From: a virus
DNA length: 27,431 nucleotides
IMG/VR virus record: IMGVR_UViG_3300036944_000411
Location: 1 to 27,431 of that record
Reading direction: 5' to 3' (one strand)
The position numbers and the translations under genes are program-made. This document shows positions 12,166 through 19,691 of this stretch, piece by piece (position 1 is the stretch's first letter; each line of letters starts with the position of its first letter). The notes below the pieces were generated by a model that was not told where the DNA came from, searched no databases, and was given only the letters and a program-made list of their open reading frames with translations.

Positions 12166-13107
12166 TTAAGCGGTCAGGGTTTCGGTGTCAACGATCGAGT
12201 CGGTGATGATGATTGGAACTCCGAAGGATTCCGTTGGCACGCCGGGAAGGATGCCAGTGAAGGCTTCCTGCTTGGTGGATGGGGTTGTGTTCCGGCTGAC
12301 TTGCAATTGGAATGCGGAACGGCGGGACATGAGCAAATGAGTCGGACGCTCGCCAACTGGGAACTTGCTGAGAAGCTCGGCAATCTTGGCGTCTGTGCAT
12401 CCTTTGCCGCTGTCTGCGGTTAGGTCTTTCAAACGACCGATTGCATGTTTGTTGACGCACTGGAAGCCGATCCATGCGGTGAGGTCAGCGATGAATGCTG
12501 CGTAGCGCTTGGCGTCTGCATCAACTGCGTCGCCTTCGCGGAATGGCGAGAGGTCGAAGGTCGTTCCGTTGCCGTAGACGTATTGCACGCCGGTGTTGCC
12601 TGCTTTGATGGCATAAACCGAGGAACCAGTTGCGGAGGTTGTGCCGCCTGCGTCAACTACGATGTCACTGCCAAGAGCGGACACCAATGTTTGCAGACCA
12701 GCGAAGCCTTTCGAGCTTGCGTTATCACCGTAGATGGTTTGTGTTCCGACGGTGGTCAGGGCAGCGCGCATCACACCCATTGCCTCGATGGCTTGGAGAG
12801 CCTCGGCACCGTCCTCGTAACCGCGTGCGACAGCCTTATCGACTTCAACGCGAGCGGAGAGAATAAAGCACTCAACCAGACGTTCGGTGAAGTTCGACTT
12901 GGTTGCGTCCGTGCCTTCGTTGGCTTGACGGAACGCAACGCTCGGGCGACTGTTGCGGGTCACTGTCTTGTAGGACGTGCCGCGAATCGTGCGAGCTGGA
13001 ATGATTGTTACCTCAGGTGAGGCACTGGCGACTTCCTCAATCAGACCGACGATGGGATCATGTCCGTTGAGCTTGGCAAGGTCTAACAGAGTTAGGTTGT
13101 TTGGCAT
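12166..13107 (-). CDS. Major capsid protein (HK97-fold candidate)
   Basis: 313 aa, directly after the protease/scaffold gene and before a decoration-like protein, the usual slot of the major capsid protein. Sequence features fit the HK97-like capsid: a segment ASPEVTIIPARTIRGTSYKTV at the start of the N-arm/E-loop side, AIEAMGVMRAALTTVGTQTIYGD as spine helix and linker, NASSKGFAGLQTLV, and a C-terminal LLMSRRSAFQLQVSR followed by TESFGVPIIITDSI (axial-domain strand). The leader (taaacaaacaatact) is A-rich without SD. No long N-terminal delta domain, consistent with a separate scaffold. Confidence 0.8.
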   Translation of the reverse strand: MPNNLTLLDLAKLNGHDPIVGLIEEVASASPEVTIIPARTIRGTSYKTVTRNSRPSVAFRQANEGTDATKSNFTERLVECFILSARVEVDKAVARGYEDGAEALQAIEAMGVMRAALTTVGTQTIYGDNASSKGFAGLQTLVSALGSDIVVDAGGTTSATGSSVYAIKAGNTGVQYVYGNGTTFDLSPFREGDAVDADAKRYAAFIADLTAWIGFQCVNKHAIGRLKDLTADSGKGCTDAKIAELLSKFPVGERPTHLLMSRRSAFQLQVSRNTTPSTKQEAFTGILPGVPTESFGVPIIITDSIVDTETLTA

Positions 13108-13119
13108 AGTATTGTTTGT

Positions 13120-14115
13120 TTAGTGAGATTGGTTTTGAGCTTTGAAGGATGCTTCGACGAGTGCGAGTCCTTTGAGTTCGGTTTGTTTGGTGCCTTCTTC
13201 AGCTTTACCGGCGAGAACGGTTTCGCCGTTCACTGGTTTGGCTGTGATGGCGTTGAGAATTTCAAGATTGCTCTTGTCGGCTTTGATTTGTGCCTTCCAG
13301 AACGATTTGGCTTTGTCATCTTGTGGAGCGATGCGACCAGCTTTGACAGCCTCGTCGATCACGCTGTCAGCAGCTTTATCCTCGATTTCAGCGAGAGATG
13401 CTTTGAGTGTTTCTACTTCGCTAGCGAGAGCGTCACGCGATGCGGTGACTGTCTCCAGTTCGTTGGCGTGGTTGGCAGCAGCTTGCACTGCGTCGGCTTC
13501 CTTAGTCATGTAACCGGCTTCGATCTCAGCGATCTTGCTTTTCATGGCTTCGATTTCGAGCTTAGCAATTTCCATTGCTTTCTCAGGGTCAACATCCTCG
13601 GCAACAAGTCCAAGGTCGATTAGTGGTTTGATGTCCATATTGGTTTCGTTGTATGATGCAGCGATCTTTTCCATCGCCTCGAATGCTGGCTCGTTAACGA
13701 GCGAACCGATCTCGCCGTGTGTCGGCAGACCTGCTGGCGTGCCGTTGGCGAGTAGAAAGTTCGGGGAAAAATAGGAGTAGTCCTTGCCTTCGATGGCGGT
13801 CTTGCCTGCTTGTGTCCATTCGATGTCTAGCACAAGTCCAACGCCCGTTTCATATCGGAATTCTTTCGGAATGAATGATGCCGGACCAGCTTTGTGATCG
13901 AAGCCAGCGAAGGGTCGCACGTTGCGAGATTGGCGAGCTTGCAGGTCGCTTGCGAATGCAGCGAGGATCGACTCATCGACCTTCACCTTGCGCTTGGCTG
14001 CCTTGCCGTTGACGGTAGCATAGATTACATGCCTGCCTTCAGGGAGGTATACAATGCTCTCAGCCAAGGCTTCCACTTCGGTCTGGAATGATGCACTGAT
14101 GATTTCGTTCGCCAT
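13120..14115 (-). CDS. Mu I-like prohead protease and scaffold
   Basis: 331 aa. N-terminal protease part (about 20-150): AGFDHKAGPASFI with His74, a GLVLDIEWTQ segment and DYSYFSPNF with Ser117, matching the Mu I family pattern of a DH motif and a Y-x-YxSP motif. C-terminal part (about 175-250) is a long charged coiled coil (EKAMEIAKLEIEAMKSKIAEI) typical of a scaffold. In Mu the free scaffold Z is made from an internal start within the same frame; here Met160 (codon at 13636-13638) is a candidate for that role. It precedes the capsid gene. Confidence 0.82.
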   Translation of the reverse strand: MANEIISASFQTEVEALAESIVYLPEGRHVIYATVNGKAAKRKVKVDESILAAFASDLQARQSRNVRPFAGFDHKAGPASFIPKEFRYETGVGLVLDIEWTQAGKTAIEGKDYSYFSPNFLLANGTPAGLPTHGEIGSLVNEPAFEAMEKIAASYNETNMDIKPLIDLGLVAEDVDPEKAMEIAKLEIEAMKSKIAEIEAGYMTKEADAVQAAANHANELETVTASRDALASEVETLKASLAEIEDKAADSVIDEAVKAGRIAPQDDKAKSFWKAQIKADKSNLEILNAITAKPVNGETVLAGKAEEGTKQTELKGLALVEASFKAQNQSH

Positions 14116-14162
14116 TTCGAATAGAAGATTACCACCCGATTCTGGCTTGTAATTGCTTTTTT

Positions 14163-14768
14163 TTAAGTAGTGCCTTCGATCTGTGCGATGATGCTTTCGA
14201 GCGCCCCATTCGTGAACGCATCGAGATAGGTTTTCTCAGGTGGCAGAGCGTTTCGCCATGGCTTCTGCGTGATTGATTTCTTGAGCACGAATACCGGCTT
14301 GATGCCAGTCGGAGAGTTCTCATCTGCTTGCGCTAGAACGCCTTTGACGGCGAACAGTGGGGCGATTGTTCGGCTGTATGTCCGAGCTGTCAGACCGTGC
14401 GCCTCTGGCACAATCGGGATCGTCAGGAACTTTGCACGTCGCGCGGTGATCGTCCCGCCGGTGACTTTGTGCGAGAATCCGATGGCGCCTTTGCTGCGCA
14501 GTGTCACGCCTGATCCACTCGCCCCCATGATTGACCACGAGCCTGCTACTTTTCGCCACCATTGAGTTTTTTTCCTACCTGGACCATGTGTCGGAAGCGA
14601 TGGATTTTCCCACAGCTTCGATCCGCCCATGTTGTAGTATTTTTCGACAACTTCTAAAGCGTCCTGCGCTCCAGTCATCACAGCGATCTTTCGCACCGAT
14701 GCCGATTGTAGGCGGATCATTGATGCTTTTACTGGGTCGAGTCCCGTCGCCGTGATTGTGATTTTCAT
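14163..14768 (-). CDS. Virion morphogenesis (Mu gpG/P2 gpS-like) protein, putative
   Basis: 201 aa. After a short N-terminal helix region the protein has a basic, Trp-rich middle (KKTQWWRKVAGSW) and a segment with GFSHKVTGGTITARRAKFLTI, resembling the phage virion morphogenesis/tail-completion family (Mu gpG, P2 gpS) that joins heads and tails. Position between portal and the Mu I-like protease matches that of Mu gpG. I recognise the family only loosely. A 47-bp gap with a T/A run follows before the protease gene. Confidence 0.5.
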   Translation of the reverse strand: MKITITATGLDPVKASMIRLQSASVRKIAVMTGAQDALEVVEKYYNMGGSKLWENPSLPTHGPGRKKTQWWRKVAGSWSIMGASGSGVTLRSKGAIGFSHKVTGGTITARRAKFLTIPIVPEAHGLTARTYSRTIAPLFAVKGVLAQADENSPTGIKPVFVLKKSITQKPWRNALPPEKTYLDAFTNGALESIIAQIEGTT

Positions 14769-15004
14769 AGTTCGCGCTCTAGTGATTTGACGATTGCCGC
14801 GCCGATCTCATTCTCCAGCGATGTTTCAAGCGCTCGTTTATCTAGCATGAAAAACAACTGCGGAATGCGTTCGATGACTTGCTCAACCTCGATCTGAAAC
14901 GCGCCTGCCGTCATGTGATAGCTTTTGTCGATCAGGTCAGCAAAGATCTGATCCACCGGCGAGAGCCATTGCCCCGCGACCTCACGCATCTGTTCATCGG
15001 TCAT
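14765..15004 (-). CDS. Small helical protein between portal and gpG-like gene
   Basis: 79 aa from the ATG at 15004, overlapping the portal end by 11 bp; a longer frame starts at 15124 but its first 40 residues are a Lys/Thr-rich antisense-like shadow of the portal C-terminus. The protein is a mainly helical, acidic chain (EVEQVIERIPQLFFMLDKRAL, LENEIGAAIVKSLEREL). In this position Mu-like phages often have a small protein of unknown role. The stop overlaps the next ATG by 4 bp. Confidence 0.55.
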   Translation of the reverse strand: MTDEQMREVAGQWLSPVDQIFADLIDKSYHMTAGAFQIEVEQVIERIPQLFFMLDKRALETSLENEIGAAIVKSLEREL

Positions 15005-16631
15005 TTTCGATTTGTTTGAGCTTTGCGTTCGCCCACTCTCTGCCAGCGTCGCCGCCCCAGCCGTGCCATGCCTGCCAGCCTTTGCCTTTGTCGCCCCATG
15101 TCTCGCCTTTTTTGTCGATCTCATGGCGTGCGAAGAATGATACCATGCGCTTGACTGTCTCAGCCGATAGCTCGGAACGATTGGAAATGTCCCTTGCTCG
15201 TGCGATGCCGACCGATGTCATACCACGCTGTGATGCTGGCTTCTGTCTGCGGATTTCGAGAGCGTCTTGTGCTGCCTTTGCCATGTCATCGGTTGGTCGC
15301 AGGTCAATGTCAGCGCGCGCTGCCTCGGCGATTTCAGGGAGTAACGGAAGCGGATCTTCGACTTCGCCAAATAGCGCCTCGCCTTCTTGCGGTTCTGCGA
15401 TTCCGAGTTCGTTGTAGATCCATTTGTTCGAGACTGGAAGCCCGATGTCCTTCGTGACGATCTTGACGCGCTCGGCGATTGCTTTCTCGTCCTTCGGCTT
15501 CGGTATTACGATTTCAGCATAGGGCATGTCCTCGCTGGCGATCGCTGCGCCGTAATTCATACGAACGATTGAAGGAATCAACTGTGTTGTCACGACCTGC
15601 CCGATCCATGTCGCGACTGCCTGCAAGATGTCGCCGCGCACTGTAGCGTGGACATCGCCAAGCGCTCGGCTTCCGCTGTCGCCCACGTCTGTGGTGAGAG
15701 TTTGTCCAAGCATGAGAATATCGCACGCTTTGTCTGATTCATTCATGAGAGCTACCTGTGGCAGCGATTCGCCACCTTTGATGCCGTCCATGATCGAGAA
15801 CTTCACACCCGGTCCTGTGACTGCATAGCCGCTCGTTCCGATGTTCTCCAGCATTTCCTGCGCTTTCATCATTGCTTCGTCACTGCCGTCCGTCTCAGCG
15901 TGTCGCCACGGGATCGAGTAAAGCTGCGCGTATTGCATGAACCAGCCCAGTCCATAAATTGCACCGAGCCAGAACTTCGTGAGAGCGCGGAGGTTTGCCG
16001 AGTGGATCGGGTGACAGCCTCCTTGCTGCCAGATGGCAATCAAGAACTTGTCGGGCGGGAAGTCGATCAGGGTGTCGTAGTTGACGCCGTTCGGTGCCAT
16101 CATCAGTCGGTCAATCTCATTCGATGCAGAAGGATAGGCGAGATACTTAGCAGGCACTGGAGCGTAGCAGCGCGGTGAAACGATGCCGTTCTCAGTGTGC
16201 CAGATGATTTCCACGACGCTGATACCTTTGGCGTAGGCGTCAATCAGCGCCTTGATCATGCCCTTCGTGTCGAGTTCCCAATGGCTTGGACGTGGAGCAT
16301 ATGATTCAAGCGCTCGTTCGACTGTTTCGTGGATCTGCAATGCCTGCGGTGTCGGTTCCTCGGCGCCTTCGCGGATACCTGGCTTGATCTCGATGTCGAG
16401 AGCCGTTACGTTTCCAGCGATCTCGTTGATGCACTTGCGCAGACGCGACCAAGAATCGACCATCATGCGAAACAGCCGATCTTGATCCTCCAGCTTGCCG
16501 GTGCGCACGTTGCGCAGGATACTACGCACCTGTTCTGGCGTTACATTGGCAAGGTCATAGTCCTGCGTGCGGTAGGAAGCTGGCAAAGGCGCTACGATGC
16601 CCTTTCGTTCGTCTGCGGTCATGGTGAGCAT
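14994..16631 (-). CDS. Portal protein (DUF935, Mu gp29-like) with extra C-terminal domain
   Basis: 545 aa from the ATG at 16631; an in-frame TTG at 16667 directly after the terminase stop is possible. The body has DUF935 portal features: a helical N-terminus (DRLFRMMVDSWSRLRKCINE), an IGNV-like core (EIAGNVTALDIEIKPG), GISVVEIIW, FKFW-like segments (RALTKFWLGAIYGLGWFMQY) and a DVGDSGSRALGDVH motif. The portal is the dodecameric vertex for DNA entry. After about residue 470 comes an extension (RMVSFFARHEIDK, then GWQAWHGWGGDAGREWA) that I recognise as a small domain found on various phage structural proteins, not part of the portal fold. Confidence 0.88.
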   Translation of the reverse strand: MLTMTADERKGIVAPLPASYRTQDYDLANVTPEQVRSILRNVRTGKLEDQDRLFRMMVDSWSRLRKCINEIAGNVTALDIEIKPGIREGAEEPTPQALQIHETVERALESYAPRPSHWELDTKGMIKALIDAYAKGISVVEIIWHTENGIVSPRCYAPVPAKYLAYPSASNEIDRLMMAPNGVNYDTLIDFPPDKFLIAIWQQGGCHPIHSANLRALTKFWLGAIYGLGWFMQYAQLYSIPWRHAETDGSDEAMMKAQEMLENIGTSGYAVTGPGVKFSIMDGIKGGESLPQVALMNESDKACDILMLGQTLTTDVGDSGSRALGDVHATVRGDILQAVATWIGQVVTTQLIPSIVRMNYGAAIASEDMPYAEIVIPKPKDEKAIAERVKIVTKDIGLPVSNKWIYNELGIAEPQEGEALFGEVEDPLPLLPEIAEAARADIDLRPTDDMAKAAQDALEIRRQKPASQRGMTSVGIARARDISNRSELSAETVKRMVSFFARHEIDKKGETWGDKGKGWQAWHGWGGDAGREWANAKLKQIENDR

Positions 16632-16669
16632 GGCAATAGCACGCAATGCAGCCAATGGCAAGCTCAAAT

Positions 16670-18019: not shown

Positions 18020-18405
18020 TTTTTCGCCTTTGCCCGTGCGATTTCCACGAGGGTAGAAAGGTTTTTATCTTGCTCAACCGATAGCGGTAGCTGCATGACT
18101 GGTGATCCATCTGGTCCACTGATCTCCTGCTTGTCTGCCTGTCCGAGCATGTTCTTGCCGAGGAAAATGAGCATCGTCACATTGCCAGCGAGCGCAACCT
18201 CGATCTGCTTTTTGCGTAGTCGGGTTTTCCCATTCTCGCGCCCTTTTGTGATAACATCGGAAAAACGGTCAGTGAGCGTGTCCACCGAGCATCCTATGAT
18301 TGCCGCGATTTCTTTGTTTGGACAGCCGATGCCTGCGAGCTTTTCGACAAGGTCTGGGTCAATCTCCAGCTTCGGTCTGCCGCCTTTGTTTGGTTTTTCA
18401 CTCAT
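18016..18405 (-). CDS. terS: Small terminase subunit (putative)
   Basis: 129 aa, joined by 4-bp overlaps to the methyltransferase before it and the large terminase after it. Starts with NKGGRPKLEI, then a helix-turn-helix (EKLAGIGCPNKEIAAIIGCSVDTLTDRF) as in DNA-recognition domains of small terminases, and a basic helical segment (RLRKKQIEVALAGNVTMLIFLGKNMLGQAD) typical of the Nu1-like/phage small terminase family. It would recognise the packaging site and regulate the large subunit. Call rests on the HTH, the LIFLGKNMLGQ motif and the position. Confidence 0.75.
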   Translation of the reverse strand: MSEKPNKGGRPKLEIDPDLVEKLAGIGCPNKEIAAIIGCSVDTLTDRFSDVITKGRENGKTRLRKKQIEVALAGNVTMLIFLGKNMLGQADKQEISGPDGSPVMQLPLSVEQDKNLSTLVEIARAKAKK

Positions 18406-19691
18406 GATTGTTGCTGTTCTTTCATCTCATCAAACGTCTTGCCGCTGGCTTCGTGGATTGCCTGTTTGCCTGCGAAGTCCTGCCAGCGCTTGACGATGAC
18501 GTCGCAATACTTCGGGTCGAGTTCCATGATGCGAGCGATGCGTCCGTTCTTCTCGGCTGCGATCATCGTCGTGCCGCTGCCTCCAAAGCTGTCCAACACG
18601 ATGTCCCCACCCTTGGTGTTATTGAGCATCTGATACTCAAAAAGCGCGACGGGCTTCATCGTTGGATGCTCACCGTTGCGCGATGGCTTCTCGAACTCTA
18701 GGATCGTGGTTTGCTTGCGGTCTGTTGCCCACAGGTGACCTGCACCTTCCTTCCATCCGTAAAGGCACGGTTCGTGTTTCCAGTGGTAGTCTTGCCGACC
18801 CATTACCATCGTGGACTTCTTCCAGATCAAGCACTGCCTGACTTTCCATCCCGCGTCGTGGGCAGCACCTCGGAAGTTATAGCCCTCCGAATCCGCGTGC
18901 CAGATATAGAAAACCGCTCCCTGTTTCATAACTGCATCTGCAGCCACGTAAGCGTCCCGAAGGAACGTGCGGAAGCTATCGTCGGTCATGCTGTCGTTTT
19001 GAATAGTCAGCGCATCCTTTGTTTTGCCTTCATAAGCCACATTGTATGGTGGGTCGGTCAGCCACATGTCCACATCCTGCTCGCCGCACAGCTTGCGCAG
19101 GTCATCGATGCTGGTTGAGTCTCCGCAGAGAAGGCGATGCTTCCCCATGACCCAAACGTCTCCACGCACCGTCACGGGATCGACAGGAGGCTCTTGCACC
19201 TCGTCTGGATCGGTTTTGCCTTCAATTGTTTCAGCAAGCAAGTCAGCAAGTTCTGATTCATCAAAACCAGTCAGAGATAAATCAAAATTGTCGTCTTGCA
19301 ACTCTGCTAGCTCCAGCGCTAGCATTGAATCATCCCATCCGCTATTCAGTGCCAGCTTGTTATCAGCGATGACGTAAGCCTTGCGCTGCGTTTCGGTCAG
19401 GTGATCTAAGCGGATGCACGGCACCTCGGCAAGTCCGAGCTTCTGCGCTGCCATGATGCGCCCATGCCCTGCGATGATGCCGTTCTCCGCGTCGATCAGA
19501 ACTGGGTTAGTAAATCCGAACTCTCGGATGCTGCCTGCGATTTGCGCGACCTGTGCCTCGCTGTGCGTCCTGCTGTTCCGAGCGTATGGGATCAGTGAGT
19601 CGGTTTTGAGTATTTCTATTTTCGGTTTGTTTTTCATGACGTAGTTTTCTCTTGACGTGTTTTTCTCTCTTGGTAAAATCTTGGTTATCAC
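18402..19691 (-). CDS. ParB-domain-fused DNA methyltransferase (adenine-N6 or cytosine-N4)
   Basis: 429 aa from a GTG forming a GTGA overlap with the MuF-like stop; an ATG at 19637 is the alternative start and loses only a nonconserved 18 residues. Residues about 24-120 are a ParB N-terminal domain (NSRTHSEAQVAQIAGSIREF, then IIAGHGRIMAA with GHGR at 75-78). Residues about 175-410 are an N4/N6 methyltransferase of the beta order: DPPY (213-216) comes before the AdoMet motif DSFGGSGTT (367-375), with HPTMKP at 342-347. It modifies DNA bases, probably protecting phage DNA from restriction; the ParB part may aid DNA loading. It lies inside the packaging operon, directly before the terminase. Confidence 0.9.
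   Translation of the reverse strand: MITKILPREKNTSRENYVMKNKPKIEILKTDSLIPYARNSRTHSEAQVAQIAGSIREFGFTNPVLIDAENGIIAGHGRIMAAQKLGLAEVPCIRLDHLTETQRKAYVIADNKLALNSGWDDSMLALELAELQDDNFDLSLTGFDESELADLLAETIEGKTDPDEVQEPPVDPVTVRGDVWVMGKHRLLCGDSTSIDDLRKLCGEQDVDMWLTDPPYNVAYEGKTKDALTIQNDSMTDDSFRTFLRDAYVAADAVMKQGAVFYIWHADSEGYNFRGAAHDAGWKVRQCLIWKKSTMVMGRQDYHWKHEPCLYGWKEGAGHLWATDRKQTTILEFEKPSRNGEHPTMKPVALFEYQMLNNTKGGDIVLDSFGGSGTTMIAAEKNGRIARIMELDPKYCDVIVKRWQDFAGKQAIHEASGKTFDEMKEQQQS

What the first reader, a model, noticed from the sequence alone, without database searches (positions are those of the whole stretch)
14994..16631. Portal with an extra C-terminal FFARHE/GWGGDAG domain
After the DUF935 portal body, about 80 residues follow that carry RMVSFFARHEIDK and WHGWGGDAGREWA, a domain I know as a separate module on other phage structural proteins. 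Its fusion to a portal suggests a packaging, assembly or ejection role for this poorly described module.
Basis: partly seen in the sequence, partly recalled or inferred. Interest (0 to 1): 0.5.

Follow-up and report, generated by a model that had tools for sequence, protein, structure and literature searches.

The report
Portal carrying a wandering head domain
The doorway protein of this virus of microbes carries at its end a small extra domain of unknown job that other viruses attach to one or another of their head proteins, and that some bacteria also make on its own.

Summary
The Mu-type (DUF935) portal on the minus strand ends in an extra ~98-residue domain (residues 459-556; 15293-15000). 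AlphaFold gives a confident six-helix domain (pLDDT 96) behind a disordered linker. It matches PHROG 2859 (function unknown); no Pfam or NCBIfam family reaches its cut-off and no PDB match is significant.

It is not an ordinary portal part: 0 of 80 Mu-type loci carry it and no module place coincides with any of 82 DUF935 places in 299 Pseudomonadota genomes, against 75 of 75 relatives of this portal whose contigs reach it. It recurs behind the portal domain of four Pfam portal families, on prohead proteases and capsid polyproteins, or alone. Each of 43 chosen records has exactly one copy. In bacteria it is mostly a small gene, with a TUDOR-type domain beside or joined to it in 49 of 80 loci. 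Three portals 84% identical to a carrier lack it, two keeping an apparent scar.

My reading: a head-interior passenger, perhaps acting on DNA; location is inferred, activity not shown. A 79-aa gene overlapping the portal's end is probably Mu's portal tail, detached.

The parts
14994..16667 (-). Mu-type (DUF935) portal gene with C-terminal module; likely start ATG 16631 (residue 13) or residue 16 rather than TTG 16667
   Evidence: Pfam PF06074 E 2.6e-62; fold match to JBD30 portal Z 27.6 and Mu portal Z 26.2
15372..16538 (-). portal body, residues 44-432
   Evidence: AlphaFold model; dN/dS 0.015-0.034 against the 13 closest relatives compared
15294..15371 (-). linker, residues 433-458, mostly predicted disordered (433-452 pLDDT under 50)
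15000..15293 (-). six-helix accessory module, residues 459-556 (PHROG 2859 family)
   Evidence: pLDDT 96.2, pTM 0.86; alignment A2 of 106 sequences; PHROG 2859 E 7.2e-15
15111..15149 (-). RMVSFFARHEIDK, residues 507-519; A2 invariant M508, F512, H515
15030..15068 (-). WHGWGGDAGREWA, residues 534-546; A2 invariant W534, W537, G538, G539, G542
14765..15004 (-). 79-aa gene overlapping the portal's end by 11 bases; probable detached relative of the Mu gp29 C-terminal tail
   Evidence: found behind the portal in 74 of 80 relatives, the other 6 being cut at a contig end; profile match to the Mu portal C-terminus 72% probability over 52 columns, controls at most 5.1%

Best explanation
The extension is an accessory, independently folding six-helix passenger domain that the phage places inside its head by fusing it to a head protein whose chain end faces the interior, here the portal. 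Shown by computation: it is a real, conserved domain of a promiscuous family; most phage carriers to which Pfam gives a functional name are head proteins (portals, prohead proteases, capsid polyproteins); one copy in each record searched; absent from the DUF935 portals of other groups sampled; missing from some near-identical portals of one group. Inferred: the module hangs on a flexible linker past the last ordered part of the portal, inside the capsid, beside the DNA, in 12 copies. Inferred, weaker: what is selected is its presence in the head rather than a fixed partner or dose, and it acts on DNA (packaged or entering), as suggested by its pairing with TUDOR-type proteins in bacteria, its Lys/Ala-rich tails in Xanthomonas and its conserved arginines.
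For: Fold: pLDDT 96.2, pTM 0.86 alone; in the whole portal it stays at 88-95 for residues 461-550 after a linker under 50. Position: the portal body 15-427 aligns to JBD30 portal residues 11-409 (Z 27.6, rmsd 8.1) and to the Mu portal (Z 26.2, rmsd 7.1); the JBD30 paper puts crown and wing inside the capsid and the Mu paper reports the last 124 gp29 residues absent (passages). Carriers: Pfam of 80 viral carriers, one protein can count twice: S78 protease 17, Phage_capsid 7, Phage_portal_2 6, Phage_portal 5, Clp protease 5, Portal_Mu 4, DUF2213 1, Mu_F 1, ART-PolyVal 1; HATV-3 adds Phage_portal_3. One copy in 43 of 43 records, which I chose. Missing from portals L353, L354, L356. TUDOR-type domain: in 49 of 80 genome loci (beside the module gene; in L247 in the same chain), in the same chain in 7 of 80 viral loci, in another gene in 2 of 18 isolate loci, in 0 of 97 DUF935 loci. 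Portal/other label needs 14 changes on the module tree.
Against: No assay and no DNA-binding family match. Some modules are acidic (net down to -20 in halovirus BLv36), against a simple charged DNA binder. In the window's own clade TUDOR is absent (0 of 81 loci, the window's own included) and no member whose contig reaches the module lacks it, so there it may be needed. Many carriers have no Pfam name, so it is not shown that all sit in the head; stand-alone PaBG and SCTP-2 copies are not next to annotated head genes. Loss at the portal is seen in one group only, and two of its three records are short. Interior placement rests on relatives and a model, not on a dodecamer.
Confidence: 0.45

Rival explanations
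1. Procapsid-stage assembly domain: the module works like a scaffold or delta domain, helping carrier proteins co-assemble, and is removed by the maturation protease, as the Mu portal C-terminus is thought to be.
For: It occupies the position of Mu gp29's absent C-terminal 124 residues; on two protease-capsid polyproteins it lies at the N-terminus, before the protease (L127, CRP-406); it is also on prohead proteases; a Mu-like protease gene lies three genes downstream.
Against: One copy per record on carriers of very different dosage (copy numbers recalled); missing from near-identical portals; the probable Mu tail relative is the separate ORF2, and the module itself shows no similarity to that tail (0.3%); chromosomal bacterial copies.
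Confidence: 0.22
2. Ejected effector: the module enters the cell with the DNA and acts on a host target, like effector domains known on portals, MuF and polyvalent proteins.
For: One viral carrier joins it to ART-PolyVal and a 1880-residue open frame in a Burkholderiaceae MAG to zeta toxin, ParB and AAA domains; published precedent for PBECR, 2H and InPase domains on portals (PMC5512222 passages); one copy per record and loss from some portals.
Against: No enzyme family or known fold found; free bacterial copies, often at one chromosomal place in Rhizobiales, are not explained; a portal-linked copy would need cleavage to leave the head.
Confidence: 0.2
3. Ordinary part of DUF935 portals, overlooked because it is poorly annotated.
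For: Present in every relative in the window's clade whose contig reaches it (75 of 75) and in part of a second DUF935 group.
Against: 0 of 80 Mu-type, 0 of 6 Akkermansia-phage-type, 0 of 5 reference and 0 of 30 prophage loci (of the 30, L372 is short); no module place coincides with any of 82 DUF935 places in 299 genomes.
Confidence: 0.02

Closest known systems
PHROG 2859 (unknown function)
   Same: Same domain: all 15 seed sequences match it, best E 1.1e-31
   Different: The PHROG profile spans 740 positions, the module only part of it; no function is attached
Portal of phage Mu (gp29) and JBD30, Pfam Portal_Mu PF06074
   Same: Portal body by sequence and fold
   Different: Mu-type portals sampled end in a different C-terminal tail and lack the module
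Portal-MuF fusion proteins of haloviruses HRTV-28 and HRTV-4
   Same: Module lies behind the portal part
   Different: The records note a Mu gpF-like part; Pfam finds PF04860 and Mu_F in HRTV-28 and nothing in HRTV-4
Polyvalent phage proteins and effector domains fused to portal or MuF (PMC5512222, passages read)
   Same: Small domain carried on a portal, plausibly placed in the head
   Different: No recognised enzyme or effector domain; one known carrier plus one small module
Small bacterial proteins beside TUDOR-type genes (Rhizobiales and others)
   Same: Same domain, 42-59% identical to the window's module over the aligned part in the 80 genome loci kept
   Different: Mostly free proteins (64 of 80 loci have open frames of 180 aa or less), no portal; function unknown

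Membership tests
Portal_Mu (DUF935) portals | Pfam PF06074 match above cut-off | tested here: met
   211.6 bits against cut-off 23.9
Portal_Mu (DUF935) portals | Portal fold like Mu and JBD30 | tested here: met
   Z 27.6 over 365 residues, rmsd 8.1 (8rka_A); Z 26.2 over 324, rmsd 7.1 (9knu_A); Z 25.7 over 313, rmsd 4.0 (9khx_M); model mean pLDDT 75.8
Portal_Mu (DUF935) portals | C-terminal tail after the body as in Mu gp29 | tested here: inconclusive
   Not in the portal; a separate gene matches that tail at 72% profile probability
PHROG 2859 module family | Profile match | tested here: met
   E 7.2e-15 in the whole protein, 8.8e-16 for the module
PHROG 2859 module family | Conserved core (L12 G29 R32 A33 M50 F54 H57 G72 A75 W76 W79 G80 G81 G84 in module numbering, residue = number + 458) | tested here: met
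   Invariant in the 106 sequences of A2, the window's included; in the 15-sequence set with haloviruses fewer are invariant
PHROG 2859 module family | Shared fold | tested here: met
   47 BFVD models at E 0.001 or better, among them a gp29-type portal (TM 0.97 over the module), prohead proteases and a TUDOR protein
Polyvalent proteins | Recognisable enzymatic or effector domains in the same chain | tested here: not met
   Only Portal_Mu reaches a Pfam cut-off; no NCBIfam or PADLOC match
Polyvalent proteins | Packaged in the virion and delivered to the host | not testable with these tools
   Needs virion proteomics and delivery assays
Solved domain fold in the PDB | Fold match of the module | tested here: inconclusive
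   No Foldseek match at E 0.001 or better; best VIA Z 3.7 among 38 chains

The most novel reading that the evidence does not exclude
A previously undescribed DNA-associated head-interior domain, shared by phages, haloviruses and bacteria and partnered with TUDOR proteins, that phages insert once per genome into whichever interior head protein is available, so that a DNA-acting factor is packaged with, and perhaps delivered alongside, the genome.
Probability: 0.25. Interest if true: 0.75.

Novelty: new variant of a known kind. Interest (0 to 1): 0.52.

Why it matters
Its pattern (one copy per record, changing head partners, absence from some near-identical portals, pairing with TUDOR in bacteria) makes it testable in small purified proteins and may help to find passengers of the phage head. 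It also shows a portal whose probable Mu-type tail has become a separate gene.

Tried and rejected
Ordinary portal part: rejected by counts. In one search at most 16 candidates of a genome were scored, so a weak module could be missed there.

Known domain under another name: Pfam, NCBIfam, PADLOC and PDB sequence searches gave no significant match to the module; the Calponin, DUF6009, DUF7185, DUF5014 and calcium-binding hits are weak or below cut-offs. The PDB fold search found nothing at E 0.001.

Programmed frameshift from portal into ORF2: rejected as the general rule, because the distance from portal stop to ORF2 start varies over 74 loci (-11 in 36, -8 in 18, -4 in 11, -1 in 4, +120 to +239 in 5); coupled translation is simpler.

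First ORF2 profile comparison gave 50.8% over 28 columns; the run with another alignment of the Mu tail gave 72% over 52. Neither is proof.

TUDOR partnership as explanation for the window: not used alone, because the window's clade has no TUDOR match within its loci.

The viral carrier list kept the 80 best of at least 555, and the genome list 80 of 292, both ranked by likeness to the window's module, so carrier proportions are not unbiased. The 43 records were picked by me, mostly larger ones; some are fragments. Partner clusters merged through shared domains; only the Xanthomonas cluster is used. Partner labels on the tree were set by me and record annotations; the class protease_MCP_other is mixed and includes unnamed proteins. 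For dN/dS, L019 and L032 were dropped for an in-frame stop; L047 and L300 also had stops.

Literature: searches by motif strings, PHROG number and neighbouring family names found no paper on the domain; they listed three papers (on Pfam, an ART family and an algal virus) that I did not open. sought related topics. The library holds open-licence papers only. Matched passages only were read of PMC5512222, PMC7824862, PMC11445458 and PMC11915804; others were seen in listings.

Full report
What was seen. The finding is real but lies on the minus strand. The 557-residue ORF is a Mu-type portal (Pfam PF06074 at 64-423, E 2.6e-62) whose last 98 residues or so are something else. PHROGs recognises them as part of PHROG 2859, function unknown; no Pfam or NCBIfam family reaches its cut-off there. 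The window is an IMG/VR virus record and holds one copy.

Is it a domain? An alignment of 106 modules from phages and bacteria has 14 invariant positions, and AlphaFold folds it as six helices at pLDDT 96.2. In the whole portal the module is confident while the linker before it is not. It is under purifying selection: dN/dS 0.016-0.067 for the module against 0.015-0.034 for the body, over the 13 closest of 24 usable relatives; the other 11 give 0.10-0.26 for the module where computable, and many of those pairs are near saturation (two of 26 relatives were dropped for a stop codon). The PDB holds no clear fold relative; the viral model library holds 47 at E 0.001 or better, among them portals, prohead proteases, XkdF proteases, a TUDOR protein, ParB-like and HAD-like proteins.

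Is it normal for the portal family? No. Of the 80 nearest relatives, all 75 whose contigs reach this region carry it, one of them cut inside it. None of 80 Mu-type loci, 6 Akkermansia-phage-type loci, 5 reference-phage loci or 30 prophage loci does. In 299 Pseudomonadota genomes there are 82 PF06074 places in 59 genomes and 7 genomes with a module, the centre genome included; no place coincides. A more distant DUF935 group (three members 23-26% identical to the window's portal) is split: 3 of 6 loci have the module and 3 do not, although the bodies of those 3 are 84% identical to carrier L117. Two of the three that lack it keep residues like the end of the module's last helix (QLDKAEGK), which suggests loss rather than absence from the start. 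One of these three records, of 37,311 bases, has no module anywhere; the other two are short (10,755 and 14,468 bases) and have none either. So for those portals the module appears dispensable.

Where else is it? Among 80 viral carriers Pfam names S78 proteases (17), capsid proteins (7), three portal families (6, 5 and 4), Clp proteases (5) and single cases of DUF2213, MuF and ART-PolyVal (one protein can count in several families). HATV-3 adds a fourth portal family, and CRP-406 a protease-capsid polyprotein. On the portals scanned the module lies behind the portal domain, last in the chain or followed by further segments. Small free versions exist in phages: Vibrio phage 1.123.O between the MuF-type gene and a coiled-coil gene, S-CBS4, and PaBG next to gyrase genes. 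Each of 43 records searched whole has exactly one: 17 isolate phages and 26 IMG/VR records that I chose, mostly the larger ones; some are fragments. On a tree of 122 modules the portal label needs 14 changes, gains and losses not told apart; the window's clade is one group (support 96) with Vibrio phage modules nearest (support 89). Many forks are open, since only 110 columns are available.

Bacteria. Of 80 genome loci kept of 292, 64 have open frames of 180 aa or less. A TUDOR-type domain lies beside the module gene (in L247 in the same chain) in 49 of 80 genome loci, in the same chain in 7 of 80 viral loci, and in another gene in 2 of 18 isolate loci, but in 0 of 81 loci of the window's clade and 0 of 97 DUF935 loci then held, three of which carry the module (with a profile grown from two seeds of my own; Pfam finds Hva1_TUDOR in 6 of the 80 viral carriers). 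Seven Xanthomonas proteins share a C-terminal region; in the two that I read it is a Lys/Ala-rich tail. In a draw of 299 Pseudomonadota genomes the module is rare, 7 with the centre included.

Where it sits. The portal body superposes on JBD30 and Mu portals up to residue 427. The JBD30 paper states that crown and wing stay inside the capsid, and the Mu paper that the last 124 residues of gp29 are absent and may be cleaved by protease I (passages). The module therefore most likely hangs inside the head. This is inference from relatives.

The neighbour gene. ORF2 (14765-15004) overlaps the portal's end and is found in 74 of 80 relatives, the other 6 being cut at a contig end. Its profile matches the Mu portal's C-terminal tail at 72%, against at most 5.1% for ten earlier segments of the Mu portal (1-105 to 361-465, the last reaching into the tail), 1.5% for reversed ORF2 and at most 0.8% in 20 shuffles. 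The simplest account is that the module sits between portal body and tail and that the tail is now a separate, probably translationally coupled gene.

What it does. I judge a head-interior passenger that acts on DNA most likely (0.45), then a procapsid assembly domain (0.22) or an ejected effector (0.20). The location is reasonably inferred; the activity is a guess from company. The acidic haloviral versions and the absence of TUDOR in the window's clade speak against a simple DNA-binding story.

Novelty. Accessory domains on portals are known (PMC5512222 passages). This domain appears undescribed: no family entry outside PHROGs in the libraries searched here, and no paper on it found in searches.

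Noticed in passing
window 12166-16667: Mosaic head: a Mu-type portal and Mu-like protease (Mu-like_Pro E 9e-17) beside an epsilon15 gp7-type major capsid protein (NCBIfam NF045672 E 6.5e-49).
   Followed up: no
window 14765-15004: 79-aa gene overlapping the portal end, probable detached relative of the Mu gp29 C-terminal tail.
   Followed up: partly
L121, L153, L114, L178: Other small domains of unknown function (DUF5824, DUF3721, DUF6582) share chains with the module; DUF5872 is on 13 of 80 viral carriers.
   Followed up: no
L184-L259: In Rhizobiales the free module gene often lies near ruvC-ruvA-ruvB and a ybgC-like gene (gene names recalled from sequence, not searched), with a TUDOR-type gene beside it.
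   Followed up: partly
L130, L135: Two viral proteins join an N-terminal ART-like region to a C-terminal module (Pfam ART-PolyVal E 1.1e-19 in L135; L130 by eye only).
   Followed up: partly
L019, L032, L047: Portal reading frames with an in-frame stop among close relatives of the window's portal; sequencing error or broken gene not told apart.
   Followed up: no
window 18402-19691: DNA methylase gene with an N-terminal ParB-like region that falls just below the Pfam cut-off.
   Followed up: no
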